Below are positions 33,895-59,088 of a DNA stretch of 64,000 nt, in pieces. This DNA is from Deltaproteobacteria bacterium. Lineage in GTDB: Bacteria > Desulfobacterota > Binatia > UTPRO1. The first letter of the stretch is position 1; the number at the start of each line of letters is the position of its first letter. The stretch covers positions 1 to 64,000 of the forward strand of contig JAJCZP010000040.1 of NCBI GenBank assembly GCA_029262315.1. Direction: 5' to 3'. Both the position numbers and the translations under genes were made by a program. The notes under the pieces are model-generated. The model was not told the origin of the DNA. It made no database searches and saw only the letters and a program-made list of their open reading frames with translations.

Positions 33895-34650
33895 TTAGGC
33901 GCCCGGTGTCGCGATCGGTGTCGGTGCGCTGTCGGAGTCCCTCTCCGAGCCCCGCCTCACCATGCAACCGAAGGAGCTGTTCACCGTAGTGCGTGAGCGC
34001 GCTTGATTGAGCTGCACGCGAAGGCCCATCGCGTTCGTTACCCCGTGGTGCATGGATGACCAGTAGAAGTCGTCGCCCTCGTCCACCGTGCCCAGGATCA
34101 GCGCCGGGGGAATGGTTTGTAGCTCGGCGAGCGTCGGCAGCCGCCAATCGCAGTTTCCGGCGAAGCACGTACCTCCGCTCAGTCCGTTCGCCGCCGCCAG
34201 GAGGCTCGTGTAGATCGTGCCATCCGCTGCGGAGCCGCCCGCACCGCCGGCGCTCCACGAGTAGGAATTGTCCCTATCGTGGACGCTGCCCTCATCCGTC
34301 TTTTGCTCCCACTGGAGCCCGGTCAGACGATCCGTTAGCGTCCCGTCCGCATTGTCCTCGTAGCGCTCATCGTCACACGTCGCGCCGCTGCCGCTCGCTC
34401 TCTTCTGGAGCTTTGCCCAGGTGGCATCGTACTTCGCTTGGCACTTCGCGGTCGCCGCCACGAACTTGGTGAAATCGCTGCCGCTGTTGAAGGCCCCGGT
34501 CGCTTTGTGATGACACTGCGCGTACTTGGCGGCAGCGAAGTAGCGCCCCTTCTGGCACTTCTGCTCAGGCGTCCGGCCCGCGTCGGCCGCGTGCACGAGC
34601 AGCACGGTCGTGGCAACCATTGCGACAGAGAACCGTTTGGACGCGCGCAT
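33895..34650 (-). CDS. Secreted Cys-module protein with DUF1566 (Lcl C-terminal-like) domain
   Basis: 251 residues from ATG 34650 with GGAGG upstream (CAAGGAGGGACTCATCATG). Signal peptide about 1-25. A Cys/Lys helical segment follows, with C32, C46, C70 and C92; C70 to C92 has exactly 21 residues between and a Lys at position 10, the same spacing as in three other proteins of this window. Then comes the DUF1566/Lcl-type domain: EDNADGTLTDRLTGLQWEQK, NCDWRLPTLAELQTI, DDFYWSSMHHGVTNAMGLRV, as found in secreted attachment and fimbrial-like proteins. Likely extracellular or outer surface. Divergent from the DUF1329 gene. Confidence 0.8.
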   Translation of the reverse strand: MRASKRFSVAMVATTVLLVHAADAGRTPEQKCQKGRYFAAAKYAQCHHKATGAFNSGSDFTKFVAATAKCQAKYDATWAKLQKRASGSGATCDDERYEDNADGTLTDRLTGLQWEQKTDEGSVHDRDNSYSWSAGGAGGSAADGTIYTSLLAAANGLSGGTCFAGNCDWRLPTLAELQTIPPALILGTVDEGDDFYWSSMHHGVTNAMGLRVQLNQARSRTTVNSSFGCMVRRGSERDSDSAPTPIATPGA

Positions 34651-34929
34651 GATGAGTCCCTCCTTGAGGGTCGCCGGAGCCGAAGTTGAGTACGCTAGCC
34701 AAGGCCGGAGGACCTGTCCACTTCCAGGTTCATCTCACGGGAGCCATTTCGGCGGAGGGCGCGCGCGCTCCGGCGCAGGCAGTCCGCGGAGAGCACCCGG
34801 GCGCTGCTGTAGCGACCGGAGAGGCTTCGAATGGGTCTGGAGGGGCCGCGCTTGAACCATCCACAAGAAACATGAGACAAGGCGGGGCTAACCGCGCCGA
34901 TCTAATCCCGAGGCGCAAGGAGCCGTAAG

Positions 34930-36192
34930 ATGGTGAAACCAACGGTCATACTCGCCGCGCTGACGGCAATCTGGGTCCTCACTGCATCCCCCGTCCGGGC
35001 AGACGTTCAGCCGGGGGACCGGATCACGATGGAAAACGCCGAGAAGGTGAAGGACCTGGTCTCGCCCGCCATGTACTGGTGCGTGCAGCACGGGTTCCCG
35101 ATGACTATCGTAGAGCCGAAGCCGATCTCCCTGCGCTCCGCCTTCCTCGAGGCAACGGAGAAGTACTCATCGCAAGTGCGGCTGGCCGAGGATGGGCTGT
35201 CGCTCAAGAATTTCGTCGCCGGTCGGCCGTTTCCGAACGTCACCGCCGAGGATCCGCTGGCCGCCGTCAAGATCATGCAGAACTACAGCTTCTCGCTCGC
35301 GTTCGACGATCTCGATGGCCGCAACTTCGACGCCGACACCGGACCGATCTCGCTGGATCGCCCACTGCAGGTGGAGCGCCACTTCCTCATGGAACACTTC
35401 ATGAGGCTGTACTACGTCGGGCGGCTCTACGTGGACCCAAAGCCCTCGTGGCCGAACGAAGAGGGCTATCATTATAAAGAGACCCTCAAACCCATGATCG
35501 AGCCGTTCGATCTGAAGGGTGTCGGCTTCACCTACTATCGCTATCTCGACCCGAAACGCCAAGACGATAGCTGGCTCTATCTCCCGTCGCTCCGTCGTGT
35601 CCGCCGCCTCTCCACGGCGCAGCGCTCGGACGCGCTCTTTGGCCAGGATACGGACCAGGACAGCTACGGCGGGTACGCCGGGCAGATAGCGTGGATGGAC
35701 TGGAAGCTGCTCGGCGAACAGGAGGCGCTAGCCGCCGTCCACGCCGAGGTCTTCCCCGTCGAGTGGGCGGAGGGCGCCGCGGACTGGGCCTTCGACAGCG
35801 AGTGGGAGAAGCGCGACGTCTGGGTCGTCGAGGGCGTGTCGAAACTTCCCCAGTACGCGTACTCGAAGCGCGTCCTGTACGTCGACAAACAGCTCTATCT
35901 CACACCCTACGCCGATATGTACGACCGTGGCGGCGAGCTCTGGAAGATCTGGGTGAACAACATCAAGTTCGCCAAGGAGCCGTTCGCCGGAAGTCCGCTG
36001 ACCTATGACGAGGAGACGCCCTTCGTTCCCGGCATCGTGATGGTCGACATCCAGCTCGAGCACGCCACCAAGGGGTCGGTACCCAGTCACCGATTCCCGG
36101 GTCAGCCCGGGATCTACTGGCACCAGGGTGATGATGGGTACGTGAACGAGGAACAGTTTACCATCGCGAAGCTGATCGCCTCGGGGCGCTGA
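34930..36192 (+). CDS. DUF1329-family outer-membrane-related protein
   Basis: 420 residues; ATG 34930 has AAGGAG 8-9 bases upstream. Signal peptide about 1-25. The block DSWLYLPSLRRVRRLSTAQR then SDALFGQD (about 210-240) is the DUF1329 signature and is shared with the LolA-like protein at 43378 (DMWLYLPELGRVRQL, then QSDSLFGSD). The barrel-like C-terminus contains DRGGELWKIWVNNI and DIQLEHATKGSVPS. DUF1329 proteins are periplasmic LolA/LolB-like shuttles often encoded with DUF1302 outer-membrane proteins and thought to move lipids or hydrophobic substrates. Here it is monocistronic, and the DUF1302 gene lies 5.6 kb away in another operon. Confidence 0.88.
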   Translation: MVKPTVILAALTAIWVLTASPVRADVQPGDRITMENAEKVKDLVSPAMYWCVQHGFPMTIVEPKPISLRSAFLEATEKYSSQVRLAEDGLSLKNFVAGRPFPNVTAEDPLAAVKIMQNYSFSLAFDDLDGRNFDADTGPISLDRPLQVERHFLMEHFMRLYYVGRLYVDPKPSWPNEEGYHYKETLKPMIEPFDLKGVGFTYYRYLDPKRQDDSWLYLPSLRRVRRLSTAQRSDALFGQDTDQDSYGGYAGQIAWMDWKLLGEQEALAAVHAEVFPVEWAEGAADWAFDSEWEKRDVWVVEGVSKLPQYAYSKRVLYVDKQLYLTPYADMYDRGGELWKIWVNNIKFAKEPFAGSPLTYDEETPFVPGIVMVDIQLEHATKGSVPSHRFPGQPGIYWHQGDDGYVNEEQFTIAKLIASGR

Positions 36193-36564: not shown

Positions 36565-39500
36565 ATGATCAAGAACCTGACAGGCGCCCGTGTCGCTGCG
36601 CTGGCTATTGCACTGCTTTTCGGTTGGGGGGCAGGCGCCCAGGCCGCCACACCGGAAGGGAAATGCAGCGCCTCGTTGATCAAGGAAGCCGGGAAGTACG
36701 TCAAGGCGCGGACCAAGACGCTCACCAAATGCAACGACAGCCAGCTCAAGGCGAAAGCTGGCTTCAACGGATTGCAGGGTGGTCTTTGCCGGAGCAACGA
36801 CGGCAAGACGCAGGAGAAGCTCGACAAGGCCGAGGCCAAGTTTCAGGCTGCCGTCGACAAGCAGTGCGGCGGGAGCGGCAAGAGTTGTCAGGACGGTGAT
36901 GCGCTCGATCTCGACGACCTGGCCATCGGGTGGGGGCCGGGTGGCGGCTTTGGCGGCAACTGTCCAGGTTTCGAGGACGTGGACAGCTGTGCGTTCGTGA
37001 TCGATGACTGCGGCGGCGTGAGCTCGAGCGGGAGTGGCGTGAGTGATTGCCTGCTCTGCATCAACGACGCGGCGGTCAACCAGGCGATGGACCTGGTCTA
37101 TGGCGATCTCGATCCGACGAACTTCGGCGCCGCCGATGATCCCGAGAAGACCCGCAACAAGTGCCAGCAGGCGCTCGTCAAGTCGTCGGCGAAGTTCCTG
37201 CTCGCGAAGTCGAAGATTCGCGGCAAGTGCTGGGCCTCGCTCGACAAAGGCAAAGCCGGATTCAGTTCGTCCGACGAACTGGGCTGTATCGACGCATCGG
37301 GCAAGACCGACGCCAAGATCGCCAAGGCCGAGTCGAAGAAGATCGCCGGTATCTGCAAGAAGTGCGGTGGCCCCGGGAAAGCGTGCGCGGAGACGATGGG
37401 GCCGGCAACCGCGCTGGTGCTCGGGGATAGTCTCGCGGACGACCTCGATCCGCAGACCGAGATCGGTTTCGGCCTCACGTGTCCCGACGTCACGCTTCCC
37501 TATGTGCCGAACACCAACTGCGGCACCCTCGATGACCTCACCAGCGGCACCGCGGCTGACGTGATCGATTCGTCGGAAGAACTCGTCCGCTGCATCGACT
37601 GTGTGCTGGAGTTCAAGGTCGACTGCATCGATCGGGCCACCGCGCCGCACCGCGAGGCATTTCCCGACGAGTGCACTGTGCTCGCCAAGGCTCAAGCGTT
37701 CGAGATCACAGATCCCAGCGACCTGATCGGCGGTAAGCTCGCGCGTGGGCAGACCGGCGACTACATGATCAGGAACGGCAAGATTCGCGTCATCATCCAG
37801 AAGGCGGGCCGCAACTTTTCCGGCTCAGTTGGTCAGTACGGTGGCAACCCGATCGACGCCGATCTGGTGCGTGCTCCGGGCGATCCCGGCAACGATCTCT
37901 TCGAGGAGTGGGCGTTCCTGATCAACACCGAGAACACGGCGAACCACACGAGTGTGATCGTGGTCAATGACGGCACCAACGGCAATCCTGCCGTGATTCG
38001 CGCCACCGGTCCAGATGATCTTCTGGATCGTATCAACCCGAGCAGCGTCGTGGCGGATTTCGGACTGCCATTCCCGGCACCGCTCGACGACACCGATCAG
38101 CCGGTCGAGGTGAGTACCGACTACATTCTGGACCGGGGCACGGACGCCCTACGCATCGAAACCACGGTGACCAACACCAGCGGTGCCGCGATTGATCTCT
38201 TCCTCGGCGACTTCCTGGCCGGCCTTGGGCAGGAGGTCTTCCATCCGGGCTACGGCTACGGCGAGCCGCTGGCGACGACCGCGTGCGGCGTAGGCGCCGC
38301 CTCGCCGTGCGACTTCTGGGCCTACGCGGGCGAGGGGGAGAAGGGGGGGGTGTCGTACGGCTACATTCAGACGACGCCCGGCTCGACCACGTTCAACACG
38401 ACCGGCGTGCAGATCAGTCTCCTGGGCGCCAATGCGGTGCTCGCGCTGGTCGGCGTCCAGACGCCGAACTTCACGATCGATCCCGCCGCCAGCGTGACCG
38501 TGACACGCCACATGGCGATCGGTGACGGTGATGTGGCTTCTGTGTTGGACATCCGGAATCAGCTGACCGGACTTGATGTCGGAACGGTGTCTGGCCAGGT
38601 CACCGTCGGCGGCGTGGGCACCGAGGGCGTCGAGATCTCCGTGCTCAGTCAGGATCCGGCGGAAGGGCCTGGTACCACAGTGAACGTGGTCTCCCAGTTC
38701 CGCACCGATGCCAATGGTGACTACGAAGGCACGCTGCCGGTGGGTGACTACGAGCTCACCGCCCACAAAGAGGGGCATCTCTTCGGCGCGCCGAGTGCGG
38801 TGCCGCTGGTCATGACGTCGGGGGCGAGCCTAGTGCAGAACTTCACGATCGCTCCCCCAGCGACGCTCAACGTCGACGTCGTCGACCACAACGCCGCTCC
38901 GATTGGGGCGCGCGTCACGCTGGTGGGCTTCGATCCTTCGGTGGATCCGGGGAACAGCCAGCTCGTTCTCGGCCTCGTCCAGAACGACACGGCTGTCTTC
39001 GGTGACATCACGAAGGATCCCTTTCCCTACGGGATCGCGAGCATCCACCACGTGGATCCGAGCGGATCGATCTCCATCTCGCTCGAGCCCGGCGACTACC
39101 GCGCGGTGGTGTCGCACGGCACGGAGTACTCGGCGGACAGCTTCGATTTCACCGCTGTCTCCGGCGTCGCGACGAACCTGAGTGCGACCGTGGCCGAGGT
39201 GATTGACACTACGGGCTTCGTCTCGATGGACATGCACGTCCACTCCTTCGATAGCCCCGACTCGGCCGTCACGCGGCGCGAACGGATTCTGAGCATGATC
39301 GCGGAAGGGATCGACTTCTTCACGCCGACCGAGCACGAAGTCCGCGCCGACTTCAGTGGCGACATCGCCGACCTGGGTGTCGGGGCGCTGATCTCGGTTG
39401 CTCCCGGAAACGAGATCACCCCATTCGACTATGGCCACTTCGGCGCCTTCCCGGTGACGGTCGATCCGAATCTGCCAAACGGTGGTGCCATCGACTGGGG

Positions 39501-40587
39501 CCGTGCGGCACCTGCCGGCATGGACTTCCCAGTCTACGGCGCCTTCGGGCTGACCCCCGGGGAGATCTATGACGCCGTCGCACTCGATCCGGGGACGGAA
39601 ACGATGACCATCAACCACGTCGCGAGCTTCTTCGATGGAGGTCTGCGCTTCGATACTGGCATAGCGCCGCCGAAATCCTTCGGCGATCCGACGGACTTCC
39701 GACTGGACCCGAGTGTGCTCAATTTCTGGGACGACGATTTCACGGCACTCGAGATCTGGATCGCCACCAGCCGCGGCCAGATCTTCGACAGCTTTCTCGG
39801 AGAGAATACGGGCAACTGGTTCAATCTGCTGAACCAGGGGCGCGTCCGGACGGGCACCGCCTCGTCGGATACCCACACGCTCTACAGTGTGTTCTCGGGC
39901 TTCCCGCGGACGTACGTGCCGGCGGTGACGGACGATCCATCGCTGCTCGGCGGGATTGCTGAAGATCTGGCGATCGATCTGAACAGCGGCCGCGCGATTG
40001 GCTCGGCGGGTCCGTTCCTCCGCGTCAGCGTCGAGGGCGATCCGAACGAAGTGGGTGGGCTCGGCCTGAGCGAGGATACGCTCGTCAAGGCGATCGGCAC
40101 CTCGGCGACGATCACCGTCGAGATCCAGAGTCCGGACTGGGCGCCGTTCGATACCGTTGAGTACTACGTGAACAGCGCGCCGATTCCAGACACGACGGGG
40201 CGCGCAGGCTTGCCGCCCTTGTACCGCTCGTGTCCCGACGTGATCCAGACCGATGGTGTCGACTTCAGCGTGACGTCCGTCGCGGTGAACGGGGCAACGC
40301 GCCTGGAGGCGACGAGCACTCTGGCGCTTACCGGATTGTTGGAAGACACCTGGGTGGTGGCGATCGTTCGTGGCACGGACGGCGTGTCCTGTCCGATGTT
40401 CCCGGTAGTGCCGCACAGTCTGAGCGCCGCGGCGAATCCAACGCTGGCCGATCTCAAAACCTGCACCTTGGGTGCGGGCGAGCTCGGGATTCCAGCGATG
40501 GCGTTCGCGAACCCGGTATTCGTCGACGTGGATGGGAACGGCGTATTCGATCCGCCGGGCCTGGCGTTCGGCGTTTCGTGTCCGTAA
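36565..40587 (+). CDS. Large secreted PHP-domain metallohydrolase (CehA/McbA-like) with duplicated N-terminal Cys modules
   Basis: 1340 residues from ATG 36565 with GGAGGA at 36552-36557. Signal peptide about 1-27. The N-terminus has two copies of a Cys/Lys helical module: C34-x21-C56-x18-C75-x25-C101, and again C200-x21-C222-x18-C241-x25-C267, with Lys at position 10 of each 21-residue gap. Between the copies lies a Cys-rich loop (about 130-170). Residues about 380-680 form a beta-rich domain of unknown type. Two carboxypeptidase-regulatory-like beta domains follow (about 690-870). Then the PHP/CehA-type domain from about 885: MDMHVHSFDSPDS with D889, H891 and H893, EGIDFFTPTEHEVRADF, and a later NHVASFF. 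It should be an extracellular metal-dependent phosphoesterase or hydrolase. It precedes the HEAT-repeat gene by 5 bases. Confidence 0.85.
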   Translation: MIKNLTGARVAALAIALLFGWGAGAQAATPEGKCSASLIKEAGKYVKARTKTLTKCNDSQLKAKAGFNGLQGGLCRSNDGKTQEKLDKAEAKFQAAVDKQCGGSGKSCQDGDALDLDDLAIGWGPGGGFGGNCPGFEDVDSCAFVIDDCGGVSSSGSGVSDCLLCINDAAVNQAMDLVYGDLDPTNFGAADDPEKTRNKCQQALVKSSAKFLLAKSKIRGKCWASLDKGKAGFSSSDELGCIDASGKTDAKIAKAESKKIAGICKKCGGPGKACAETMGPATALVLGDSLADDLDPQTEIGFGLTCPDVTLPYVPNTNCGTLDDLTSGTAADVIDSSEELVRCIDCVLEFKVDCIDRATAPHREAFPDECTVLAKAQAFEITDPSDLIGGKLARGQTGDYMIRNGKIRVIIQKAGRNFSGSVGQYGGNPIDADLVRAPGDPGNDLFEEWAFLINTENTANHTSVIVVNDGTNGNPAVIRATGPDDLLDRINPSSVVADFGLPFPAPLDDTDQPVEVSTDYILDRGTDALRIETTVTNTSGAAIDLFLGDFLAGLGQEVFHPGYGYGEPLATTACGVGAASPCDFWAYAGEGEKGGVSYGYIQTTPGSTTFNTTGVQISLLGANAVLALVGVQTPNFTIDPAASVTVTRHMAIGDGDVASVLDIRNQLTGLDVGTVSGQVTVGGVGTEGVEISVLSQDPAEGPGTTVNVVSQFRTDANGDYEGTLPVGDYELTAHKEGHLFGAPSAVPLVMTSGASLVQNFTIAPPATLNVDVVDHNAAPIGARVTLVGFDPSVDPGNSQLVLGLVQNDTAVFGDITKDPFPYGIASIHHVDPSGSISISLEPGDYRAVVSHGTEYSADSFDFTAVSGVATNLSATVAEVIDTTGFVSMDMHVHSFDSPDSAVTRRERILSMIAEGIDFFTPTEHEVRADFSGDIADLGVGALISVAPGNEITPFDYGHFGAFPVTVDPNLPNGGAIDWGRAAPAGMDFPVYGAFGLTPGEIYDAVALDPGTETMTINHVASFFDGGLRFDTGIAPPKSFGDPTDFRLDPSVLNFWDDDFTALEIWIATSRGQIFDSFLGENTGNWFNLLNQGRVRTGTASSDTHTLYSVFSGFPRTYVPAVTDDPSLLGGIAEDLAIDLNSGRAIGSAGPFLRVSVEGDPNEVGGLGLSEDTLVKAIGTSATITVEIQSPDWAPFDTVEYYVNSAPIPDTTGRAGLPPLYRSCPDVIQTDGVDFSVTSVAVNGATRLEATSTLALTGLLEDTWVVAIVRGTDGVSCPMFPVVPHSLSAAANPTLADLKTCTLGAGELGIPAMAFANPVFVDVDGNGVFDPPGLAFGVSCP

Positions 40588-40592
40588 GGGCG

Positions 40593-41836: not shown

Positions 41837-43375
41837 TTACAGGAACAGGCGCATGCCGAGGCGTACCCCGTCGTAGTCGCGATACTGCCCGAGGGCTTGG
41901 TTGCGGCTGCCACCGATGAAGCGCGCGCCGAGCAGCACGTGCCAGCGCGGCATGACCTTGTACGTGAGCTGAGGCCACACGTAGTAGTCGCCATAGTTCG
42001 GCATGTAGGCGATCTTGAGTTCGGCACGGAGGCGCTCGTCGAGGAAACTTTGGCGGTAGGTGAAGCCGAGTGTGTGCTGGACAGCGTCGGAGATCAGGCG
42101 TGAGTCGTGGTCGAAGATCACTTCCTCGAGTAGCTGGAAGAGCAAGAAGGTGCCGGCAAGCGCGGTGCTGCCCACGAGCTGTTCGGACAGCAGCTCGCTG
42201 ACGACAAGGTCGACGCCGACACCATACTGGAACATGTCGCGTTCGAGTTCCGAGGGGCCAAGCGGCACGTCGACCTGCTCTGCCGTACCACTGCGTGCGA
42301 CCCGCATGGCGGCCTCTTCGACCACCAGCAGGGCCCCTTCACCCGAGGTGAGCTCCTCCTGGAGGAGTGTCGAGTGAAAGCGACCCGTAATCCATGCTGC
42401 TTCGGCGCGGAGCGCCAGGAGCCAAAGGGGAGTCGCGAAGTCGAAGCCGAGCGCCGTAATGCGGTGCAGACTCGGAGCGATCTCGACGCTGGCAAGGATA
42501 TCCGCCGGACGGGCGGGAATCCCGGTCGGGGTGACGTTGGCGGTCGTCCGGACTCCGAACGTCGCGGTCTTGTCGAAACCATGAAAGAGGGCGAGCGAGA
42601 ACTCGCTCCCACGCCAGAAGCGGGTCAGGCGGATGCCGACGTCGGAATTGGCGAGCGTCCACGCGGGAGGATCGACATCGAGGTAGCGTGTACGTGTCGG
42701 GAGCGGGCCGAGCGAGGTTTCGACCACGCTGGGAATGCGGAGGAGAGGCGGAAACCAGCGGTCTTTCTCGTTGGGAAAGCGATACGCTGTGTAGGTCGGA
42801 CTCCAGACGAAATCGAGTGTCCATGGGCCACGGAATCCAAGGATTCGAAGCGCCGGGATGCCGATTTTGCGCTCCAGTTCAGGGCGGAAGAAGAACTCCG
42901 TCTGATCCTCAGGGTTCAGATGATCGGTCGGCTGAATCTCATCGAGCTGTCCCCACGAGATTTTTTGCAGGCCGACTCGTACCTCGAGGCTCTCGAAGAA
43001 CGTTTCCAGATAGACTTCGTCGAAGTCCAGGAACAGGTCGCGGTTGGGGTAGACTTCATCCAGCGGCAGTACCGGATTGCTGCCGCGTGGATCGCCGACC
43101 TTGCCGTCGAAACCACCGTCAATACGCGCCACGAGCCGAAAGCGTTTCGTGTGCGTTGCCTGGAAGGCCAGGGTGAACCTCGTCGAAGGGTCCTCGTGCG
43201 GCGTGTCGTCATCGAGACGAATGACGTTCCAGACGTCGACCCACCCGCCGAGGTCGACGTCGGTGTCCCCGAGCGCGAGCGCCGCCGCGGAGGCCGTGGC
43301 CGTGGCGCACATCGCGTTCAGCACCAGGAATCCCACGATGATCCGGAAGGATCGGGGTCCACGGCGACGGAGCAT
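41837..43375 (-). CDS. DUF1302-type outer-membrane beta-barrel protein
   Basis: 512 residues; ATG 43375 begins two bases after the stop of the LolA-like gene. Signal peptide about 1-31 (RIIVGFLVLNAMCATATASA). The mature protein has alternating amphipathic strands and features of the DUF1302/alginate-export-type porins: LGDTDVDLGGWVDVWNVI, VYPNRDLFLDFDEVYLETFF, VGLQKISWGQLDEIQPTDHL, NPEDQTEFFFRPELERKIG, and a C-terminal aromatic strand ending RLGMRLFL. The ISWGQLDEIQPTD block is characteristic. Likely a passive or assisted outer-membrane channel for hydrophobic compounds, working with LolA/DUF1329-type periplasmic shuttles. Last gene of the operon that begins with the DAACS fusion. Confidence 0.85.
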   Translation of the reverse strand: MLRRRGPRSFRIIVGFLVLNAMCATATASAAALALGDTDVDLGGWVDVWNVIRLDDDTPHEDPSTRFTLAFQATHTKRFRLVARIDGGFDGKVGDPRGSNPVLPLDEVYPNRDLFLDFDEVYLETFFESLEVRVGLQKISWGQLDEIQPTDHLNPEDQTEFFFRPELERKIGIPALRILGFRGPWTLDFVWSPTYTAYRFPNEKDRWFPPLLRIPSVVETSLGPLPTRTRYLDVDPPAWTLANSDVGIRLTRFWRGSEFSLALFHGFDKTATFGVRTTANVTPTGIPARPADILASVEIAPSLHRITALGFDFATPLWLLALRAEAAWITGRFHSTLLQEELTSGEGALLVVEEAAMRVARSGTAEQVDVPLGPSELERDMFQYGVGVDLVVSELLSEQLVGSTALAGTFLLFQLLEEVIFDHDSRLISDAVQHTLGFTYRQSFLDERLRAELKIAYMPNYGDYYVWPQLTYKVMPRWHVLLGARFIGGSRNQALGQYRDYDGVRLGMRLFL

Positions 43376-43377
43376 AG

Positions 43378-44223
43378 CTACGGCGTGCGTTCCAAGTGTC
43401 GCTTCGTCAGTCGAGTGCAGGGCAGGGGTGCATCGTAGTCGACATCGAGCAGCGTCACCTCGGTGCGATGCTCGCGTTGGTGATTCTCCATGGTGAATCT
43501 GAACGGCGTCGGAACGCCCTGCTTGATGCGGATGTCGTCGGCCCGGCCGGTCTTGAGCAGTGCCCCGTCACGGTCGTGGTAGGCGAACCGCACCGGGAGC
43601 GAGAATCCCTTGCTTATCCAGGTGACGATTCGGCTGTAGCGCTCGGGAAGCAGGGGGATGCTCTCGACCACGAAAGTCTCCGCGTCATCGATGCTCTCGA
43701 TGCGGAGCAGGCGGTGGGTTCGGAGGTCGACCGGGACCGGCGCGAGATCGGCGTAGCTCACGTCCGAGCCGAACAAGCTGTCGCTTTGGGCGAAAGGATT
43801 GAGCTGCCGAACACGACCCAGCTCTGGCAGATAGAGCCACATGTCGGGGGCACGGTCCGGGTAGCTATGGGTGAGGATCGCCGACCCCGCGAGGTCTGGA
43901 GGGTCATGAACCAAGACCAACGCGCGCGCGTGCGCGCCGCAGCGCTTGCGATAGAAGTTCGCGGTTCGGAACGTTTGCGCCCCCGCCCGGTCGACCATCC
44001 GGAACTGGTAGCGCTTCCGGGCACCGTCACCACGTGCGCGGACTGCCTGCATCCGGCGCATCACATCCCGGCCCGTGACCGTTTCGGAACTCGCCGAGAC
44101 TGGAAGCGCGAGGGCAACCACCGTGGCAACTGCTCCCACAGTTGCGAATCGACCCCACCTAATCTTCCCGCGGTTGCGAAAGGCCCGCCGGAAACCCGTT
44201 TGCGGCGTCTGGTTTGCGTGCAT
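43378..44223 (-). CDS. Outer-membrane lipoprotein-sorting (LolA-like, TP0789-type) periplasmic protein
   Basis: 281 residues from ATG 44223 (ribosome site GCAGGGAG upstream); the longer frame to 44547 overlaps the glutaminase gene and is not used. Signal peptide ends about residue 48 (ALALPVSASSET). The mature part contains SETVTGRDVMRRMQAVRARG, FRTANFYRKRC, DMWLYLPELGRVRQL, QSDSLFGSD and IVTWISKGFSLPVRFAYHDR. This is the TP0789/outer-membrane lipoprotein-sorting fold that acts as a hydrophobic-cargo carrier. It lies 46 bases after the glutaminase homologue and 2 before DUF1302. LolA-like plus DUF1302 may form an envelope transport route; the link to the amino-acid genes upstream is only positional. 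Confidence 0.85.
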   Translation of the reverse strand: MHANQTPQTGFRRAFRNRGKIRWGRFATVGAVATVVALALPVSASSETVTGRDVMRRMQAVRARGDGARKRYQFRMVDRAGAQTFRTANFYRKRCGAHARALVLVHDPPDLAGSAILTHSYPDRAPDMWLYLPELGRVRQLNPFAQSDSLFGSDVSYADLAPVPVDLRTHRLLRIESIDDAETFVVESIPLLPERYSRIVTWISKGFSLPVRFAYHDRDGALLKTGRADDIRIKQGVPTPFRFTMENHQREHRTEVTLLDVDYDAPLPCTRLTKRHLERTP

Positions 44224-44269
44224 GTCGACTCCCTGCTCGTTGCGATAATCTGCAAGGAATGAGCCAGCC

Positions 44270-45421
44270 CTAGTCCGCCGGGGTCCCCGACGGCTCGAGA
44301 ACAGCCTCCGCTGGTCGGGCCAGGACGTGTAGGCCCCACTGCTCGGACAGGTCGCGAAGGGCGGCGACGCCACGGACGCTGTTCCCGCTGGGATCGAGCG
44401 GGGGGGAGTAGACCGCGATACCGAACCGTCCCGGCACGACTGCGATGATGTTGCCGCTGACACCACTCTTCGCGGGGAGGCCGACCCGCGAGAACCACTC
44501 GCCGGCGCTGTCGTAGAGCCCGGCCGTGACCATGGCCGAGAGGACATGCGGTACGTGCGCGCGCGGCAGCGCGCGCTCGCCCGTAGTGGGATTGGTGCCG
44601 GCGTTGGCGAGCGTCGCGGCCATGATGGCGAGACGGCGTGCCGATACCTCTTGCGAGGTCGACCTGAGATAGCGTGCGACGACGGCCTGGATGCCGTCCC
44701 GATCCGGAACCTCGAAGCAATGGGGGCCGGCGTCTCCCCGGCAGGGGACGTGAAAGAGACCCTCGGTCAACAGGCTGTACGCGAGCGCGCGGCTGCCGGC
44801 GCTGTGCGCGATCTCATAGTCGTAGATCTCGTCGAGGACGGCCACGTCGGTCCCGGCATAGCGAGCAAACGTGTCGCTCACCCTTTGCCACTTCTCGGCC
44901 CGGCTGCGGCCACGGATCATGGCCGTTGTCGCGATAGCTCCGGCACTGACCATGGGGTTCTCGAGGCGACGGGGGCGGATCGCCGCGGCGATCAAGGAGT
45001 CGAAGGGCAGCCCGGTTGCGTTCACCCCGACCTTGGCGAGCATCGTGTCGAGCCCGTGATCCTCGAGGGCGAGGCCATAGGTGAACGGCTTGGCCGTCGA
45101 CTGAATGGGGAACCTGCGCTCGGCGTCGCCAGCCATGAACACTTCACCGGAGACCGTCACCAGCGCGATGCCGAACCAATCGGGGTCCACGTGGTCCGCG
45201 CCTGATTGGTAGACCTCGCCGTTCCGGTTGTCTCGGTGGGCCGCGAGGAGGGCGGTCAGCGTCGCCTCGACGTTCGTGGTCCCGGCGAGTGTGACGGGCG
45301 CGCGGGCGAGGATGGGACTCGCCGGCCGCTCAACAGGGCTACACGCAACCAGCGTGAGGAGCAGCCAGAGCGGCGCGAAGCGTGCCCTTGCCGCCGAGGG
45401 AGAGAGGGGAGCCCGCCGCAT
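44270..45421 (-). CDS. Predicted lipoprotein glutaminase homologue with altered active site
   Basis: 383 residues; ATG 45421 lies one base after the transporter stop, so translation is coupled. Lipobox LLTLVAC (Cys about residue 27) points to the periplasm or outer membrane; glutaminases are normally cytosolic. Fold and motifs are those of glutaminase A: S108-x2-K111 in IQSTAKPFTYG, GLYDSAGEW, VGLPAKSGVSGN. Glu is conserved (E203), but the two substrate-binding Asn positions are Ser (S159 in NPMVSAGAI; S210 in GSRALAYSL), judged against the tandem glutaminase at 25084. A Cys pair (CRGDAGPHC, about 228-236) sits in a loop absent from the other copy. It may still deamidate an amino acid or have another substrate. 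Its neighbour carries a glutamate/aspartate-type transporter, which fits a periplasmic release-and-import route (inference). Confidence 0.8.
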   Translation of the reverse strand: MRRAPLSPSAARARFAPLWLLLTLVACSPVERPASPILARAPVTLAGTTNVEATLTALLAAHRDNRNGEVYQSGADHVDPDWFGIALVTVSGEVFMAGDAERRFPIQSTAKPFTYGLALEDHGLDTMLAKVGVNATGLPFDSLIAAAIRPRRLENPMVSAGAIATTAMIRGRSRAEKWQRVSDTFARYAGTDVAVLDEIYDYEIAHSAGSRALAYSLLTEGLFHVPCRGDAGPHCFEVPDRDGIQAVVARYLRSTSQEVSARRLAIMAATLANAGTNPTTGERALPRAHVPHVLSAMVTAGLYDSAGEWFSRVGLPAKSGVSGNIIAVVPGRFGIAVYSPPLDPSGNSVRGVAALRDLSEQWGLHVLARPAEAVLEPSGTPAD

Positions 45422-45422: not shown

Positions 45423-47570
45423 TCAGTCGACCCACCCGAGGACGTTTCGGAGGATGGACCAGCGCGGCTCGCGCTGCGTCGCGTTGCTGCCTTCCATCCA
45501 GGTGTGAAAAAGGCTGTCGATCGTGCCGCTGGATTTCTGGATCTCGATCCAGGCGTTCAGGTAGGCGAGGAGCTTGGCATCGCCATCGGCCACCGGGTAG
45601 GCGTTCGAGAGCGTAACGGGGTTGGGAAGTGGGACGACCACTGAAAAACGGGGGTATACCAGCGTCCACGCCGAACCCGCCTCCGCCGAGTACAGCATCG
45701 CATCGAAGGTGCCGGCCTCCGCCCTGAAGAACTCGCGGGGCGAATCCAGTGCGGTCACCTGGGCATCGGGGAGCGTCGCCCGCATCCGTTCTTCGAAATA
45801 GCCGAACCCCGGCACTCCGATTTTCAGGGAGGCCTGCCGCGCATAAATCTCCGACCTCCGCGAGAAGTGTTCACGGTCGTGGTCTTGCACGATGAACGCC
45901 AGGGTCGTGTCGAGATACGAACGGGAGAAGGTAACGCGGCGCGCGCGTTCTGGGGTCACGCCTATGCCCGACATCAGGAGATCGACTCGTCCCTCGCGCA
46001 GAGCGCGCCCCTGGCTGCCGCGTTCCAGTCGGACGAACTCGATCGACACGCCGAGGTCGTTTGCCAGTCGATGTGCCATCTCGATATCGAAGCCGACGAG
46101 CCGCCCAGCTTCGTTCATGAAGGCCCAGGGGAGCGCGTCTCTCAGATAGCCGACACGCAGGAAGCCGCGCTTCTCTATCTCGTCGAGGCGGGAGCGGCCG
46201 GCGGTGCGTGGTAGGGGGTCGGGAAGCGAGGTGAGCACCTTCGAAGGTGCGGGCGGCATCGACAGCTCCATCTCCGCGAACATCTCATAGCCCTTGTATC
46301 CACTGTCGATCGCGTAGGTGAAGAAAACGTGGATGCCGCTGAGGAGGGCAACGGCGAGGAGCACCGTGAGGGCCGCATGCGTCAGGAGGCGGCCACGGCG
46401 AATGGAGAGCTGTCCGGCCATCGCTGCGCCGCCGAGGACCGCCAGCGTGATCGTCTGCATCGCCGACAGAAGGGTTGCGAACCGACCCGTGATCACGTCG
46501 ATGGTCACGAAAAGGCGAAAGACGTCGGCCGGGATACGGAACATGTCCAAGAGGAAAGGAACCCCCACGTAGACACCGCCGAAGAGGCTCACGAGGCCAG
46601 ACACGAGTAGGTTCGGGTACTGCGTGAGCGATTGGGGGGCGCCTGCGAACCAGCCGGCGAAGAGGACGAAGCCCAGCGAGAGCAGCGTACCCTGAGTTGG
46701 GAAGTTGAACGAGGCAGGGACGATGATCTCGGCGGCGCCATCCGCCTCGGCATCGTCGATCCCCCCGGCACGGAGCAGCTCTTTGCTGCGCTCGGCGATG
46801 AGTGGGAGCACCACCATCATATTGCCCGTCGCGAAGGCGGTGACGAGCGCATCTCGGGTCTGGCCGACGACTTGCCAATAGGTGAGTCGGGTCAGGCTCG
46901 TAATCAGCATCGGCAGTGTCCACAAGGCCAGCAAGAGACAGAGTGAGATGTGCGTCGCCAGAAACACCTGCAGGCGTCCGAGCTCGCCCACGTCCATCGT
47001 GCCGGCCGCGCTCGCCGCAATGGCGAATACGCCGTAGGGCGCGAGCCGCACGACGCCGTTGGTGACCGCGGACAACGTCGCGAGCAATGTCTCGAGCGTA
47101 TCGAGCAGGGTGTCCTTCTTCTCGACGCCGATCAGCGCGACGCCCATCGCGATGCTGAACAACACGACGGCCGGGACGACCGAGGCGGAGAGCGCATAGA
47201 ACGGATTCGTGGGGATGTAGAGCTCGACGAAGTCGAAGCTCGATTCGTCCTGCACCAAGGATGCGCTGAAGAACGAAGCCGACTCCCAATCCGGAAAGGC
47301 AATCGGAATCAGTGGTACTAGCAAGAGCACGATCGCCCACAGAATGAGCAGGATCGTTCCGGCGCGGCGTGCCATCGAGACGGCCTGTGCCGGCGTCAGC
47401 CGCCCGATCCCGCCGATCAGGGAGACCGTCATGTACGGGAGCACGGTCATCTGCAACAGGCCTACAAAGGCGGCTCCCGCGACCGCCAGTGGCGCGGCCA
47501 TCTCGCCGACGAAGACTCCGGCGAAGATGCCGAGACCGAGACCGATCAGTACCTGTGTGGAGAGGGTCAT
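45423..47570 (-). CDS. DAACS-family symporter fused to a type 3 periplasmic solute-binding domain
   Basis: 715 residues. Residues about 1-430 are a dicarboxylate/amino acid:cation symporter of the GltP/GLT-1 type: FVGLLQMTVLPYMTVSLIGG (TM2 area), YIPTNPFYALS, TLETLLATLSAVTNGVVRLA. The usual Ser-rich HP1 tip is TAFATGNMMVVLP, and NMDGT is not found (FNFPTQGT instead), so the binding site has changed. A single hydrophobic segment at about 405-425 leads into SBP_bac_3 (about 465-690): RLDEIEKRGFLRVGYLRD, LVGFDIEMAHRLANDLGV, GRVDLLMSGIGVTPER. SBP_bac_3 binds polar amino acids, so a transporter carrying its own binding domain is likely. First gene of a coupled set with the lipoprotein glutaminase homologue. 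Membrane protein. Confidence 0.85.
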   Translation of the reverse strand: MTLSTQVLIGLGLGIFAGVFVGEMAAPLAVAGAAFVGLLQMTVLPYMTVSLIGGIGRLTPAQAVSMARRAGTILLILWAIVLLLVPLIPIAFPDWESASFFSASLVQDESSFDFVELYIPTNPFYALSASVVPAVVLFSIAMGVALIGVEKKDTLLDTLETLLATLSAVTNGVVRLAPYGVFAIAASAAGTMDVGELGRLQVFLATHISLCLLLALWTLPMLITSLTRLTYWQVVGQTRDALVTAFATGNMMVVLPLIAERSKELLRAGGIDDAEADGAAEIIVPASFNFPTQGTLLSLGFVLFAGWFAGAPQSLTQYPNLLVSGLVSLFGGVYVGVPFLLDMFRIPADVFRLFVTIDVITGRFATLLSAMQTITLAVLGGAAMAGQLSIRRGRLLTHAALTVLLAVALLSGIHVFFTYAIDSGYKGYEMFAEMELSMPPAPSKVLTSLPDPLPRTAGRSRLDEIEKRGFLRVGYLRDALPWAFMNEAGRLVGFDIEMAHRLANDLGVSIEFVRLERGSQGRALREGRVDLLMSGIGVTPERARRVTFSRSYLDTTLAFIVQDHDREHFSRRSEIYARQASLKIGVPGFGYFEERMRATLPDAQVTALDSPREFFRAEAGTFDAMLYSAEAGSAWTLVYPRFSVVVPLPNPVTLSNAYPVADGDAKLLAYLNAWIEIQKSSGTIDSLFHTWMEGSNATQREPRWSILRNVLGWVD

Positions 47571-49019: not shown

Positions 49020-51950
49020 ATGTCCGTGCCCCGTTTCCTGACCAGTGTCAGCGCGCTTCTCGTCGCTGGCGTTTTCGGCCTTGCGGTAGTTGCGACGGCT
49101 GCCGTCCAAAGCAAAGACGAGCAGAAATGTACCAACACCGTGCACAAGAACGGGGCCAAGTCCTCGAAGATCGTCAACAAGGACGCGCAGAAGTGTCTGA
49201 AGAACTTCGCCAAGGGCAAGGCGTTCGATGCGGCGAATCCGGCCATCGATACGTTGGAGGAATGCCTGGTCAACGATGCCAAGGGGAAGGTGCAGAAGCA
49301 GGAGGACAAGGCCGCCGACGCGTTCGGCAAGTTCTGTAGTCCGCCGCCAGAGTTTGGTGTGACCGATGCGGGCATCGTGAATGCCGCTGCCGTGACGAGA
49401 GAAGGCGATGTCGTCCACGACGTCTTCGGGCCGGATCTCGATGCGGGCCAGATGGTCTCCAACGGCGACATCGGCGACGCTGCGGATGCTGCCAAGTGTC
49501 AGCAAAAGGTACTGAAGACGGTCTCGAAGTGTCTGCAGACGCGCGAGAAAGAGTTCTTGAAGTGTGCCAAGAGCGGTCTGAAAGATGGCAGCATTGACGA
49601 TATCGGCGACCTCGAGTCGTGTTACGACGGCACGGACCCCGCGAAGATCCAGAAGAAGTGCGCGGGTATTCCTGGCCAGGGCATGCAGAAGGACGTGCAG
49701 AAATGTACCGCGACGGTCGAGGATCGGACGTTGTCGGAGATGTTCCCCGGGTGCGGGGCGGACGACGTTGCCAGCGTCACGCTTTGTCTGGACGAGGCGG
49801 CGCGCTGTCGTTTCTGCCAGTCCGCCAATGCGGCGGCGGGTGCCAACCGCGACTGCGACCTCTTTGACGACGAGCTCGCGAACGCGAGCTGTGCGGAGGC
49901 CGACCCATGTGAACCCTTGAACGCCCTGCATTGTCTCCTGCCCTATCCCTCGTCGACCTTCCTTGAGGCGGGCGCCACCTCGACCGGCTTGCAGGTCAAC
50001 ATCCCGGATGAGGGTCTGCCGACGGTGACGCCGCCGCTCGTCGCCGATCCGTTCAACGAGCTCGACGGTTTCAATCCGATGGGCGCGGCGATCATGCACT
50101 TCCCGCAGGGCGTCGATCCCGAGCTTTCCGGCGCCGCGCATTTGCTCGAGCCGGGCTGCTGCGGGCAGCCCGTCGGCCCGCCGTGGATCGACACACGCGC
50201 CCATACCGATCGCTCCCTCGACCCGAATAGTCCGAGCATCCTGATCAACGCGACCACTGGAGAGCATATTCTGCACTTCATCGAGCCCGACGGACGCAGC
50301 GAGGGGGATGTGTCGCAGCAGGTGCTCTTCCTGCGACCAGGGGTCAGCTTGGAGGCCGGGACGCGCTACATCGTGGCGATGCGCGATCTGAAGGCATCGA
50401 ACGGTGACGACGTCGTTGCCGAGGCGCCGTTTGCCGCGCTGCGCGACGGTACGGGCACGACGAGCGTTGCCACCGAGAGCCGCCGTGCGTACTACGAGGC
50501 CGACATCTTTCCGCAGCTCATCGCGGCGAATGTTCCGCGCGAGGATCTCGTTCTCGCGTACGACTTCACGACGCAAAGCGAGAAGCAGCTGACGCGCCAG
50601 ATGCTGGCCATGCGCGATCAGGGGTTGGCCTACGCTGACGCGATTCACGCCGACCCGAACGAGGTCAACTTCACGACCACCATCGTTACCGAGAATGACT
50701 GCAACGATCCCGGTGAGGTCATCTGGCGGCACGTCAACGGCACGTACGAGGCCCCGCTCTTTCTCACCGCGGTGCCGACGCTGGCGGGTGGAAACGTCCC
50801 GCAGCATTCGGTCGATCCGAACGACATCCCGGTCCAGAACGGCACCATGGATGCCAACTACGACATTACGATTCCGTGTAGTGTCCACGATCCGAATACG
50901 CCGTCGCGCCCGGTCGTGATGGGGCACGGTATTTTTGGCACCGCCGCGAGTATGGTGCTGGGCGTCCCGCAAGGGCTTGCCACCGAGGGCCCGTGGACCT
51001 ACCTCGCCGGCGGCACCGAATGGCTCGGCCTCTCGAATGGCGGCGCCGGGCAGCTCTGGGTCGCGGGAAGTATTGTTGGGCTCGGCGCGAGCCAGCTCAA
51101 CAACTTTGCCGCATTCCCGGATCGGCTCCGTCAGGGCATGTCCAACCAGTTGGTGCTTGGACGCATGATGAAGCTGGGTACCTTCAACCGGGACGCGGCG
51201 TTCCAGCTCGGGGGCGGTCAAGGTGTCTTTCCGGGCGCGGGCGAGGAGATGTACTACCACGGCATCAGCCTCGGCGGGATCATGGGCACGTACTTCTCGG
51301 GGCTGACGCCCGATGTCGAGCGCTTCAGCGTCGACGTGCCGGCCGCAAACTTCGGGTGCTTGTTGCAGCGTTCGACGCAGTTCTCCCTCTTCGAGTCGCT
51401 GTTGCCTCCGATCGGATTGAGTGCGGGGCTCGAGCAGGCCCTTGGCACCGGCGCGCTCATTCACGAGCTTTGGGTGTCGGCGGAGCCGGCGAGCTTGGTC
51501 CGCCACATCACGAGCGATCCGTTGCCTGGCAGCGGCGGTCCGAGCAAGCTCCTCCTCACGGTGGGTTGGCTCGACAAGCAGGTCTCGAACACGTGCACCG
51601 AGATCTTGGCGCGCACGATGGGCATTCCGAACGTCCAATCGGTGCAACAGGGTCTAGTGGGCATTCCTGATTCGGCAGGACCCGAGGACTCGGCCCTGGT
51701 GATCTACGACACCGGATTCTTCGATCTGTTCAACCCGGCGCACCAGGTGCACATCCCGGCGCTCTCGAACAAGATCCCGACGGGCGTCTGCGATCCGCAC
51801 AACGGTCCACGGTCGACACCCGCGGCGAGGCTGCAGATTCTGAACTTTCTGCAGCCTGGAGGCGTAGTCACGAACTTCTGTACGGGTGCCTGCGACGCCG
51901 TCGATGTCGTCGAGTCGCCGAACTTCGTGTGCGATCCGAATAATCCGTAG
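49020..51950 (+). CDS. Large secreted alpha/beta hydrolase with N-terminal Cys modules
   Basis: 976 residues; AGGAGGA sits just before ATG 49020. Signal peptide about 1-28. Two Cys/Lys helical modules: C37-x21-C59, and C160-x21-C182-x18-C201, each with Lys at position 10 of the 21-residue gap. The same spacing is seen at 33895, 36565 and 58078. From about 300 a large beta-rich and hydrolase region follows, with VVMGHGIFGTAASM (oxyanion-type HG) and nucleophile elbow YHGISLGGIMG (Ser about residue 750, G-x-S-x-G). Acid and base are probably in the later LLTVGWLDKQV and PAHQVHIPAL segments. An extracellular esterase or lipase is the most likely type; substrate unknown. A strong terminator follows at 51965. 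Confidence 0.8.
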   Translation: MSVPRFLTSVSALLVAGVFGLAVVATAAVQSKDEQKCTNTVHKNGAKSSKIVNKDAQKCLKNFAKGKAFDAANPAIDTLEECLVNDAKGKVQKQEDKAADAFGKFCSPPPEFGVTDAGIVNAAAVTREGDVVHDVFGPDLDAGQMVSNGDIGDAADAAKCQQKVLKTVSKCLQTREKEFLKCAKSGLKDGSIDDIGDLESCYDGTDPAKIQKKCAGIPGQGMQKDVQKCTATVEDRTLSEMFPGCGADDVASVTLCLDEAARCRFCQSANAAAGANRDCDLFDDELANASCAEADPCEPLNALHCLLPYPSSTFLEAGATSTGLQVNIPDEGLPTVTPPLVADPFNELDGFNPMGAAIMHFPQGVDPELSGAAHLLEPGCCGQPVGPPWIDTRAHTDRSLDPNSPSILINATTGEHILHFIEPDGRSEGDVSQQVLFLRPGVSLEAGTRYIVAMRDLKASNGDDVVAEAPFAALRDGTGTTSVATESRRAYYEADIFPQLIAANVPREDLVLAYDFTTQSEKQLTRQMLAMRDQGLAYADAIHADPNEVNFTTTIVTENDCNDPGEVIWRHVNGTYEAPLFLTAVPTLAGGNVPQHSVDPNDIPVQNGTMDANYDITIPCSVHDPNTPSRPVVMGHGIFGTAASMVLGVPQGLATEGPWTYLAGGTEWLGLSNGGAGQLWVAGSIVGLGASQLNNFAAFPDRLRQGMSNQLVLGRMMKLGTFNRDAAFQLGGGQGVFPGAGEEMYYHGISLGGIMGTYFSGLTPDVERFSVDVPAANFGCLLQRSTQFSLFESLLPPIGLSAGLEQALGTGALIHELWVSAEPASLVRHITSDPLPGSGGPSKLLLTVGWLDKQVSNTCTEILARTMGIPNVQSVQQGLVGIPDSAGPEDSALVIYDTGFFDLFNPAHQVHIPALSNKIPTGVCDPHNGPRSTPAARLQILNFLQPGGVVTNFCTGACDAVDVVESPNFVCDPNNP

Positions 51951-52000: not shown

Positions 52001-52117
52001 AGCACCGTCAGCTTTCCGGCGTACGGACTGCGCCGGTCGTCACCGTCCCTCGTAAGGTCGGGTGCGGCCGCGGAGATCCGTGAGCGGGTCCTCGGCCAGG
52101 ATGAGCACAACCCTTGA

Positions 52118-54634: not shown

Positions 54635-54765
54635 GACGACAGACGCGTTCCACCGGCGTCCATAGCCGACCCAGAATCTGCAGTCGAACGGGGCGTAGCC
54701 GTGTCGAGGCGTGTTCGCTGTGCCGGCCAGCCGACAGTCCGCGGGTTTCGTCCCACCGTCGATCG

Positions 54766-57827: not shown

Positions 57828-58077
57828 CAGCGTGCGGGTCGTGTCGAGCGCCGCGTCGAGATGTCCAGAGTCGTTCGTTCCAAACAAGCGTGAATTTACG
57901 TACGTCAGGCGGTACGTCGTTTTCGATTGATATCGCGCTTCTGGGTGTGGCAGACCTTGGAGTCGAGACAGTGCCGTCCCCATCGTGGGGTGTCTTTTCG
58001 TGCTCCTCCCTCCTGCCGTTCAGCCCGCGAGGTGCCCGGGAGGACAGGTCAGCCTGCAGCACAAGGAGGAGCGAGTC

Positions 58078-59088
58078 ATGCTGAGATACGCCCAAGCCAC
58101 CGTCCTTGCCGCCGCCGTTCTGTTGATGCCGGTCGGGAGTTCGGCCGGCATCAAGGAAGTCGCTCGGTGCCAGAAGAAGTTCGCCAGTCAGGGGGCGCGG
58201 TTCGCCCAGCGCGTCATCACCGCCACACTGAAGTGCTCGGCCGAGATCGCGGAATGCCAAGTTCAGTGCGAGGAAGGAGTCTTTGGGCCCCCGTGTTCGT
58301 CGAACCCTCCGCCGTGCTGCGATCCCGATGATCGGAACTCGAACGCTACGTTCGGGGAATGTATGGATGAGGCCGACGAAGAATGCGCCAAGCAAGATGC
58401 GAAGATCGACAAGTTCGAGATCAAGAAGGTCGAGAAGATCACGACGGCCTGCTCGCCCCTTACCCTGGACGAACTGTGCGGATCGACCGGCAACGGCCTG
58501 AACTTCGAAACGTTGAACGCGGGCTGCTTGGCCCTCGATCCGAGCTACGTCTGCAGTCTGACCAATCTGGTGGAGTGCATCGGGGGACCTCTCGAGCGTC
58601 AGCTGGTCGATCAGATCAGCGCTATCCTCGATCCCCGATTGCCGTCCGCTATCGCGGCCGCGGGGTTGCAATCGTCGTTCCCGGGCGTCCCCGTTGCGCG
58701 CAAGGTCCAAGGGGACGTTGCCGCGGGCAAGGTCGACGTGTGGGCGATCTCGGGGCAGGCGGGAGCTGTCATCAAGGCGCGGGTCCTGACGCGCAACGAC
58801 AACGGGAATGGTACCGCCAGCCTGGCGCCGGATCTCATCCTGTTGGGCGGCGATGCCGCCACGCCCGTAGGCGAGACCAACGTCGTCAGCTCGAGTTGTA
58901 GCGTGCCGCCGGCGTGCGGTGCGAGCTGTCCACTGGCGACCCGTACGCTGCCGTCGTCGGGGACCTTTCATTTCGCGGTCGGGGGCGTGCCGGCGCTCGC
59001 GGGTTGTCCCGGGGGAGCCTACCGGTTGGTCGTCGTGAGCCCGGATGGTGCGGTTCCGACGCTGGTGTTCGACGACATCGATCCGTAG
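58078..59088 (+). CDS. Secreted protein: N-terminal C-x21-C module and C-terminal PPC-like region
   Basis: 336 residues; the start at 58078 is set by a perfect AAGGAGG ribosome site (ACAAGGAGGAGCGAGTCATG). Signal peptide about 1-23. C31-x21-C53 with Arg at position 10, then a Cys-rich stretch (CSSNPPPCC, then CMDEADEECAKQDAKIDKFE) to about residue 125. Residues 220-336 are beta-rich (GDVAAGKVDVWAISGQAGAV, LPSSGTFHFAVGGV, AYRLVVVSPDGAVPTLVFDD), resembling a bacterial pre-peptidase C-terminal (PPC)-like domain. Likely extracellular. Stands alone, followed by a hairpin at 59106. Confidence 0.72.
   Translation: MLRYAQATVLAAAVLLMPVGSSAGIKEVARCQKKFASQGARFAQRVITATLKCSAEIAECQVQCEEGVFGPPCSSNPPPCCDPDDRNSNATFGECMDEADEECAKQDAKIDKFEIKKVEKITTACSPLTLDELCGSTGNGLNFETLNAGCLALDPSYVCSLTNLVECIGGPLERQLVDQISAILDPRLPSAIAAAGLQSSFPGVPVARKVQGDVAAGKVDVWAISGQAGAVIKARVLTRNDNGNGTASLAPDLILLGGDAATPVGETNVVSSSCSVPPACGASCPLATRTLPSSGTFHFAVGGVPALAGCPGGAYRLVVVSPDGAVPTLVFDDIDP

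What the first reader, a model, noticed from the sequence alone, without database searches (positions are those of the whole stretch)
33895..59088. A C-x21-C helical Cys/Lys module shared by four different secreted proteins
Directly after the signal peptide, or soon after, four proteins carry [KR]C-x9-[KR]-x11-C with exactly 21 residues between the cysteines: 36565 (twice, C34/C56 and C200/C222), 49020 (twice, C37/C59 and C160/C182), 58078 (C31/C53) and 33895 (C70/C92). In three of these repeats a further Cys follows at +19, and in the two 36565 repeats another at +26. A basic residue at position 10 and a Lys just before the second Cys recur. The C-terminal parts are unrelated: PHP metallohydrolase, alpha/beta hydrolase, PPC-like region, Lcl-like domain. 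This is modular shuffling of what I think is an undescribed disulfide-held helical hairpin, perhaps for surface attachment or partner binding.
Basis: partly seen in the sequence, partly recalled or inferred. Interest (0 to 1): 0.82.

Follow-up and report, generated by a model that had tools for sequence, protein, structure and literature searches.

The report
Lysine-rich, cysteine-stapled hairpin module on secreted proteins
One soil-type bacterium carries about 70 secreted proteins that share an undescribed, lysine-rich, cysteine-stapled helical hairpin module, attached at either end to dozens of unrelated enzymes and other domains, so it looks like a reusable attachment part in a little-known bacterial group.

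Summary
C-x21-C is the first arm of a two-arm Cys/Lys helical hairpin. Two hairpins, each followed by a Cys-rich spacer, form a ~300-aa tandem module. In the window's own genome a hairpin profile finds 135 hairpins in 72 ORFs; all 134 with an intact first arm have the second Cys at exactly +22. The module sits after the signal peptide, at the exact C-terminus, or alone. Its 66 partner regions fall into 44 unrelated clusters, with one clear module swap. No Pfam, NCBIfam or PDB family covers it. It occurs in 48 of 148 genomes of the class, which I identify as Binatota through a relative in the same family, order UTPRO1; no hit was found elsewhere in a sample of the phylum. Lysine is 17% of hairpin residues against 1% of the rest of the same proteins, in 11-residue-periodic stripes. 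Protein 33895 was read in the wrong register: its C70/C92 is arm 2 of a distant short-armed type. Best reading: a disulfide-stapled basic tether for secreted proteins. The fold type is well supported; disulfides and function are untested.

The parts
36565..40587 (+). Secreted protein 36565: signal peptide, two type-A hairpin units (tandem module), C-terminal CehA/McbA-type PHP metallohydrolase
36661..36888 (+). 36565 hairpin 1 (C34-x21-C56 arm 1, C75, arm 2 to C101, C108), type A
   Evidence: HMM iE 5e-19 (its own row is in the training set); AF2 helices over both arms
36889..37158 (+). 36565 spacer 1, Cys-rich (C133, C142, C149, C162, C165), homologous to spacer 2
   Evidence: alignments A1 and A7; downstream matches to profile positions 66-140 in other copies
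37159..37386 (+). 36565 hairpin 2 (C200-x21-C222, C241, C264/C267, C274), type A
   Evidence: HMM iE 3e-22; AF2 arms pLDDT 76-86
37387..37674 (+). 36565 spacer 2 (CPDV...C...CIDCVLEFKVDC...DEC), end of the module
   Evidence: the same end motif is the exact C-terminus of other copies
39214..40200 (+). 36565 CehA/McbA family (PHP) metallohydrolase region
   Evidence: NCBIfam NF038032 E 3.7e-21, 75.9 bits against cut-off 80
49020..51950 (+). Secreted protein 49020: signal peptide, two type-C hairpins, ~670-aa C-terminal part with no Pfam match
49125..49337 (+). 49020 hairpin 1 (C37-x21-C59, C82, C106), type C
   Evidence: type-A HMM iE 2.5e-7, type-C HMM 3.6e-16 (its own row is in the type-C training set)
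49494..49706 (+). 49020 hairpin 2 with an extra mid-helix rung: C160-x10-C171-x10-C182 / C201-x12-C214-x14-C229
   Evidence: type-C HMM 4.2e-6; the same ladder in L096, L146, L133, L139
58078..59088 (+). Secreted protein 58078: signal peptide and one type-B hairpin unit, ~160-aa tail without Pfam match
58165..58452 (+). 58078 hairpin: arms C31-x21-C53 and C103-x21-C125, inner Cys C60 and C95 matching the type-B ladder, loop insertion with four more Cys
   Evidence: type-B HMM iE 6.6e-4, decoys 13 or worse; own-genome relatives are type-B proteins
33895..34650 (-). Secreted protein 33895: short-armed (type D) hairpin plus Lcl_C domain; only a distant relative
34375..34560 (-).
33982..34344 (-). 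33895 Lcl_C domain
   Evidence: Pfam PF07603 E 5e-12

Best explanation
The C-x21-C segments are first arms of an undescribed extracytoplasmic module: an antiparallel two-helix hairpin, probably stapled by a ladder of disulfides between the arms (C1-C4 and C2-C3, plus inner rungs in types B and C), followed by a Cys-rich spacer and usually duplicated into a ~300-aa tandem. The arms carry lysine stripes with 11-residue periodicity and give each hairpin a median net charge of about +9. The module is fused to unrelated secreted enzymes, beta-propellers and repeat proteins at either end. I infer that it works as a rigid basic tether, holding exported proteins at the cell surface or in the matrix by multivalent binding to an anionic polymer or to a common surface partner. 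Supported by sequence: homologous family, tandem architecture, shuffling, likely export, helical arms, cationic stripe. Inferred: the disulfide pairing, surface location and binding target. The confidence given is for the whole statement including the tether role; for a new shuffled helical-hairpin module alone I would say 0.9.
For: 135 hairpins in 72 own-genome ORFs, and Cys at exactly +22 in all 134 with an intact first arm, while the C2-C3 loop varies from 7 to 32 residues. Types A, B and C are homologous (hhalign 98-99%; column-shuffled type-D controls at most 1.4%). Signal-peptide-like starts in 65 of 72 ORFs against 24% of control ORFs. In most C-terminal copies the stop lies 1-5 residues after the last Cys. 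66 partner regions in 44 clusters; L116 (type A) and L123 (type B) share 76%-identical ~520-aa partners, and L107 carries the module at the other end of the same partner family. Lys 17.1% in hairpins against 1.0% elsewhere in the same proteins; Lys at -1, 6, 10, 17, 21, 28 in 66-84% of arms. AF2 helices at the arms: residues 4-36, 54-75, 167-201, 221-241 and 2-32, 52-72 with block pLDDT mostly 76-86.
Against: Overall AF2 confidence is low (pLDDT 54 and 67) and no coordinates could be inspected, so C-C distances were not tested. No anchor, cell-wall motif or partner receptor was identified. Nothing in the sequence shows where the proteins end up or what they bind. The hairpin HMM was trained on C-x21-C copies, so 134/134 is partly ascertainment.
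Confidence: 0.5

Rival explanations
1. The module is an export or recognition tag for a secretion machine such as the type II system, which recognises the folded hairpins and carries the fused protein across the outer membrane.
For: It sits at either end of many unrelated exported proteins; a type II secretin is in the genome (GspD over cut-off at G000:C268); its Cys-rich fold would form in the periplasm.
Against: GspD occurs in 134 of 143 class genomes, including families f2, f5 and f9 where the A1 profile found no module, so the machine does not track the module. Stand-alone module proteins exist.
Confidence: 0.15
2. The module is an oligomerisation device: lysine-striped hairpins of different proteins pack together, or onto an acidic partner, into assemblies on or outside the cell.
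For: 11-residue-periodic straight helices, tandem duplication, one ORF with four hairpins (L098), many paralogues in one genome.
Against: Same-charge stripes (about +9 per hairpin) disfavour self-association unless an acidic partner exists; none was identified.
Confidence: 0.15
3. The module is a redox or metal-binding domain: clustered Cys such as ICKxCGGxDKxC bind a metal or exchange thiols.
For: C-x2-C and CGG-x3-C clusters are conserved in type-A second hairpins.
Against: Types B and C lack the CGGxDKxC cluster while keeping the arm Cys; the proteins are probably exported, where thiols would be oxidised.
Confidence: 0.1
4. The shared spacing is coincidence among lysine- and cysteine-rich proteins.
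For: The segments are compositionally biased (Lys, Ala, Cys).
Against: 0 of 2000 shuffles reach the six observed motifs; profile-profile and decoy controls; 72 ORFs in one genome.
Confidence: 0.01

Closest known systems
[quoted passage not shown]
   Same: Two helices, each with two Cys, forming an antiparallel hairpin held by an inner and an outer disulfide, as in TRIAP1 Cys18-Cys37 and Cys8-Cys47 (PMC12114033). The proposed C2-C3 and C1-C4 pairing here has the same topology.
   Different: Arms are 22 residues between Cys, not 10; bacterial, with Sec-type signal peptides; very lysine-rich; fused to enzymes; no Pfam match of module members to CHCH. I read it as an analogy, not a homologue.
Lcl_C domain proteins (PF07603)
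   Same: 33895 carries a true Lcl_C domain.
   Different: Lcl_C is only the partner of 33895; the hairpin lies outside it and occurs without it.
C-terminal sorting tags (MYXO-CTERM, PEP-CTERM)
   Same: A shared tail on many unrelated secreted proteins of one genome.
   Different: Here a ~300-aa folded Cys module, also found at the N-terminus or alone, and the listed tails show no terminal hydrophobic segment with a basic end.
Modular secreted-enzyme accessory domains (dockerin- or carbohydrate-binding-module-like logic; from general knowledge)
   Same: A module shuffled among extracellular enzymes at either end, often next to Thr/Pro-rich linkers.
   Different: No sequence or fold match; target unknown.

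Membership tests
Twin CX9C / CHCH | Two helices each with C-x9-C | tested here: not met
   First arm is C-x21-C in 134 of 134 hairpins
Twin CX9C / CHCH | Antiparallel helical hairpin with inner and outer disulfides | tested here: inconclusive
   AF2 helices on both arms; Cys ladder consistent; disulfides and geometry not testable without coordinates
Twin CX9C / CHCH | Profile match to CHCH family models | tested here: not met
   No CHCH family among Pfam hits of 30 members at E<=0.1
Twin CX9C / CHCH | Mitochondrial intermembrane-space import through Mia40 | tested here: not met
   Bacterial genome, signal-peptide-like N-termini
Any Pfam or NCBIfam family over the module | Model score above the curated cut-off over the hairpin | tested here: not met
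   only isolated weak single-member hits to unrelated models
Known fold in the PDB | Sequence-profile or Foldseek match | tested here: not met
   no match at E<=0.001 (the models are of modest confidence)
MYXO-CTERM / PEP-CTERM tag | C-terminal hydrophobic segment followed by basic residues | tested here: not met
   C-terminal tails listed end in YPxEC-type or other polar sequences
Hairpin family described here (types A-C) | 33895 belongs to it | tested here: inconclusive
   Not significant with the A-C HMMs; distant type-D profile link 92%

The most novel reading that the evidence does not exclude
A bacterial class has built its own general-purpose extracellular attachment system: a long-armed, disulfide-laddered, lysine-striped hairpin module recognised by a common surface polymer or receptor and used to display dozens of unrelated enzymes, comparable in logic to the dockerin or type IX tail systems but with an unrelated fold.
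Probability: 0.3. Interest if true: 0.85.

Novelty: new variant of a known kind. Interest (0 to 1): 0.62.

Why it matters
About 70 genes in a 5.9-Mb genome carry the module, so it is one of the largest shared features of this organism's secreted proteins, yet no curated family covers it. Recognising it would annotate a large part of the secretome of a class with few or no cultured members and separate real enzymatic domains from the shared module. It also gives a clear test of how such bacteria keep enzymes at their surface. The 22-residue (two 11-residue repeats) stapled arm is an unusual and easily testable design for a stable extracellular helix.

Tried and rejected
The chance explanation is rejected. 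CHCH membership is rejected on spacing and profile. A first related-loci query with A1 failed because no stretch was conserved enough; a tighter alignment found five loci. That scan used only two peptide patterns, so it is weak evidence for absence from other phyla. A Fisher test of mid-helix Cys co-occurrence gave p = 0.001, but its automatic pairing was noisy and the sequences are related, so I use the ladder only as consistent evidence. Type II secretin presence does not track the module. The plasmid search and paper searches found nothing relevant.
Full report
OBSERVATION. All six [KR]C-x9-[KR]-x11-C segments are present at the stated places. Shuffled versions of the four proteins' N-terminal parts give 0.03 motifs on average and none of 2000 reached six. 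The partner labels hold for PHP (NCBIfam CehA/McbA, E 3.7e-21, slightly under its cut-off) and Lcl_C (Pfam E 5e-12), but no Pfam or NCBIfam model recognises the C-terminal parts of 49020 or 58078.

HOW BIG IT IS. Searching the window's own genome (5.92 Mb, 99.96% complete) with the N-terminal 249 aa of 36565 gave 57 matches, many spanning nearly the whole query. A profile of 30 copies (A1) gave 100 matches at E<=0.01. Around these I fetched 57 regions. A single-hairpin HMM found 135 hairpins in 72 open frames, nearly all in pairs about 150-170 residues apart, and four in one frame (L098).

ANATOMY. The unit is a ~75-residue hairpin followed by a ~70-residue Cys-rich spacer, and the standard module is two units in tandem, about 300 aa. 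The second spacer ends in a conserved C.dCVteF.vDC...VP...YPxEC motif. The second spacer matches the first-spacer part of the profile in several proteins (extra matches to positions 66-140 just downstream), which supports an internal duplication. In all 134 hairpins with an intact first Cys, the second Cys is at exactly +22, while the loop to the third Cys varies from 7 to 32 residues. Because the HMM was built from such copies, part of this constancy is ascertainment, but the loop freedom shows that the arm length is specifically constrained. Three types exist. Type A (66 hairpins) ends in CGGxDKxC. Type B (32) has an added inner Cys pair at +29 and 7-8 residues before the third Cys. Type C (36) covers the rest, some with mid-helix Cys at +11. 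A, B and C are homologous by profile-profile comparison (98-99%), while column-shuffled type-D controls reach at most 1.4%.

CYS LADDER. In type B and in 58078 the two arms have equal Cys spacing (C31-x21-C53 and C103-x21-C125, with inner C60 and C95). In the second hairpin of 49020 and its relatives, an extra Cys at +11 on arm 1 is matched by a Cys 13 residues into arm 2. Both are what an antiparallel hairpin stapled C1-C4 and C2-C3 with extra rungs would give. This is consistent, not proven.

LYSINE STRIPE. Hairpins contain 17.1% Lys and 5.4% Arg; other parts of the same proteins contain 1.0% Lys and 3.2% Arg. Median net charge is +9 per hairpin, positive in 99%. On arm 1, Lys occupies -1, 6, 10, 17, 21 and 28 relative to the first Cys in 66-84% of copies, that is two interleaved 11-residue repeats. 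The 22-residue Cys spacing equals two such repeats, so the helix is probably straight, with both Cys on one face. This part is inference.

STRUCTURE. With ten unit-level rows it gave pLDDT 67, pTM 0.68, arms at 2-32 and 52-72 with block means mostly 76-86. Foldseek against the PDB found nothing at E<=0.001 for either model. The overall models are modest; only the helix boundaries of the arms are used here.

WHAT IT IS ATTACHED TO. Signal-peptide-like starts occur in 65 of 72 frames against 24% of control frames (a heuristic). The module lies after the signal peptide in 38 frames, at or near the C-terminus in 22, alone in 7, mid-protein in 5. In most C-terminal copies the stop follows the last Cys by 1-5 residues, so the boundary is sharp. 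Pfam partners include PQQ propeller, sulfatase, trypsin, lysyl oxidase, CHRD, beta-helix/NosD, SGL, TSP3 and cytochrome c7. The 66 partner regions form 44 sequence clusters. L116 (type A module) and L123 (type B module) share 76%-identical ~520-aa partners, and L107 has a relative of that partner with the module at its C-terminus. This is direct evidence of shuffling, and it suggests that types A and B do the same job.

33895. Its hairpin is C32-x13-C46 / C70-x21-C92. It matches the N-terminal part of pectinacetylesterase-like proteins of the same genome (E 2e-5; PAE E 4.9e-12). That short-armed type D is a possible distant relative (92% by hhalign) but 33895 does not score with the A-C models.

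DISTRIBUTION. 48 of 148 genomes of the class have it at E<=1e-5, in about ten families including all five sampled relatives of the same family, and it is not found in families such as f5 and f9. In 395 genomes spread over the phylum, only class members matched at E<=1e-10. Named carriers are Deltaproteobacteria-labelled MAGs and 'Polyangiaceae bacterium UTPRO1'. UTPRO1 gives the same match coordinates as G005, a member of the window's own family. UTPRO1 is an order of the Binatota (PMC8262859), so I place the window there. The scan of other phyla used only two peptide patterns and does not prove absence.

KNOWN FAMILIES. No Pfam or NCBIfam model covers the module and there is no PDB sequence match (best E 0.87). 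The nearest known design is the twin CX9C/CHCH hairpin (PMC12114033), which shares the proposed topology but not spacing, location or profile.

MECHANISM. I favour a stapled, basic, rigid tether that keeps exported proteins at the surface or in the matrix. Shown by sequence: shuffling, likely export, cationic helical arms. Inferred: disulfides, location, target. Rivals are a secretion tag, an oligomerisation device and a redox or metal site. The type II secretin occurs in 134 of 143 class genomes and so does not track the module.

VERDICT. A real, undescribed, large family of shuffled secreted modules.

Noticed in passing
L164, L167, L168, L169, L170 (own genome C47, C180): Pectinacetylesterase-like secreted hydrolases with two tandem short-armed Cys/Lys hairpins (type D) after the signal peptide; the same N-terminal type as 33895.
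   Followed up: partly
L105, L108, L111, L114, L116, L118, L119, L120, L123, L127 and L107: A ~500-aa partner family (13 members in one genome, often ending FCVxP...INxxxGLPGxGR); the one member scanned on its own (L105) matched no Pfam model, and the family occurs with module types A, B and C.
   Followed up: partly
L098 3-2210 (-): An open frame with four hairpins (two tandem modules) and Thr/Pro linkers, running to the contig end.
   Followed up: no
G002:C2:3403-4047: A strong module match in a relative has an in-frame TAG inside, possibly a pseudogene or an assembly error.
   Followed up: no
window 45423-47570 (-): One frame encodes a sodium:dicarboxylate symporter domain fused to a family 3 solute-binding domain, next to a glutaminase gene at 44270-45421.
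   Followed up: no
window 34930-36192, 41837-43375, 43378-44244: DUF1329/LolA-like proteins and a weak DUF1302 match around the module genes, resembling outer-membrane lipid or substrate handling sets.
   Followed up: no
class families f5, f9, f2: Whole families of the class show no match to the module profile while having GspD; a comparison of carriers and non-carriers could reveal the binding partner.
   Followed up: no
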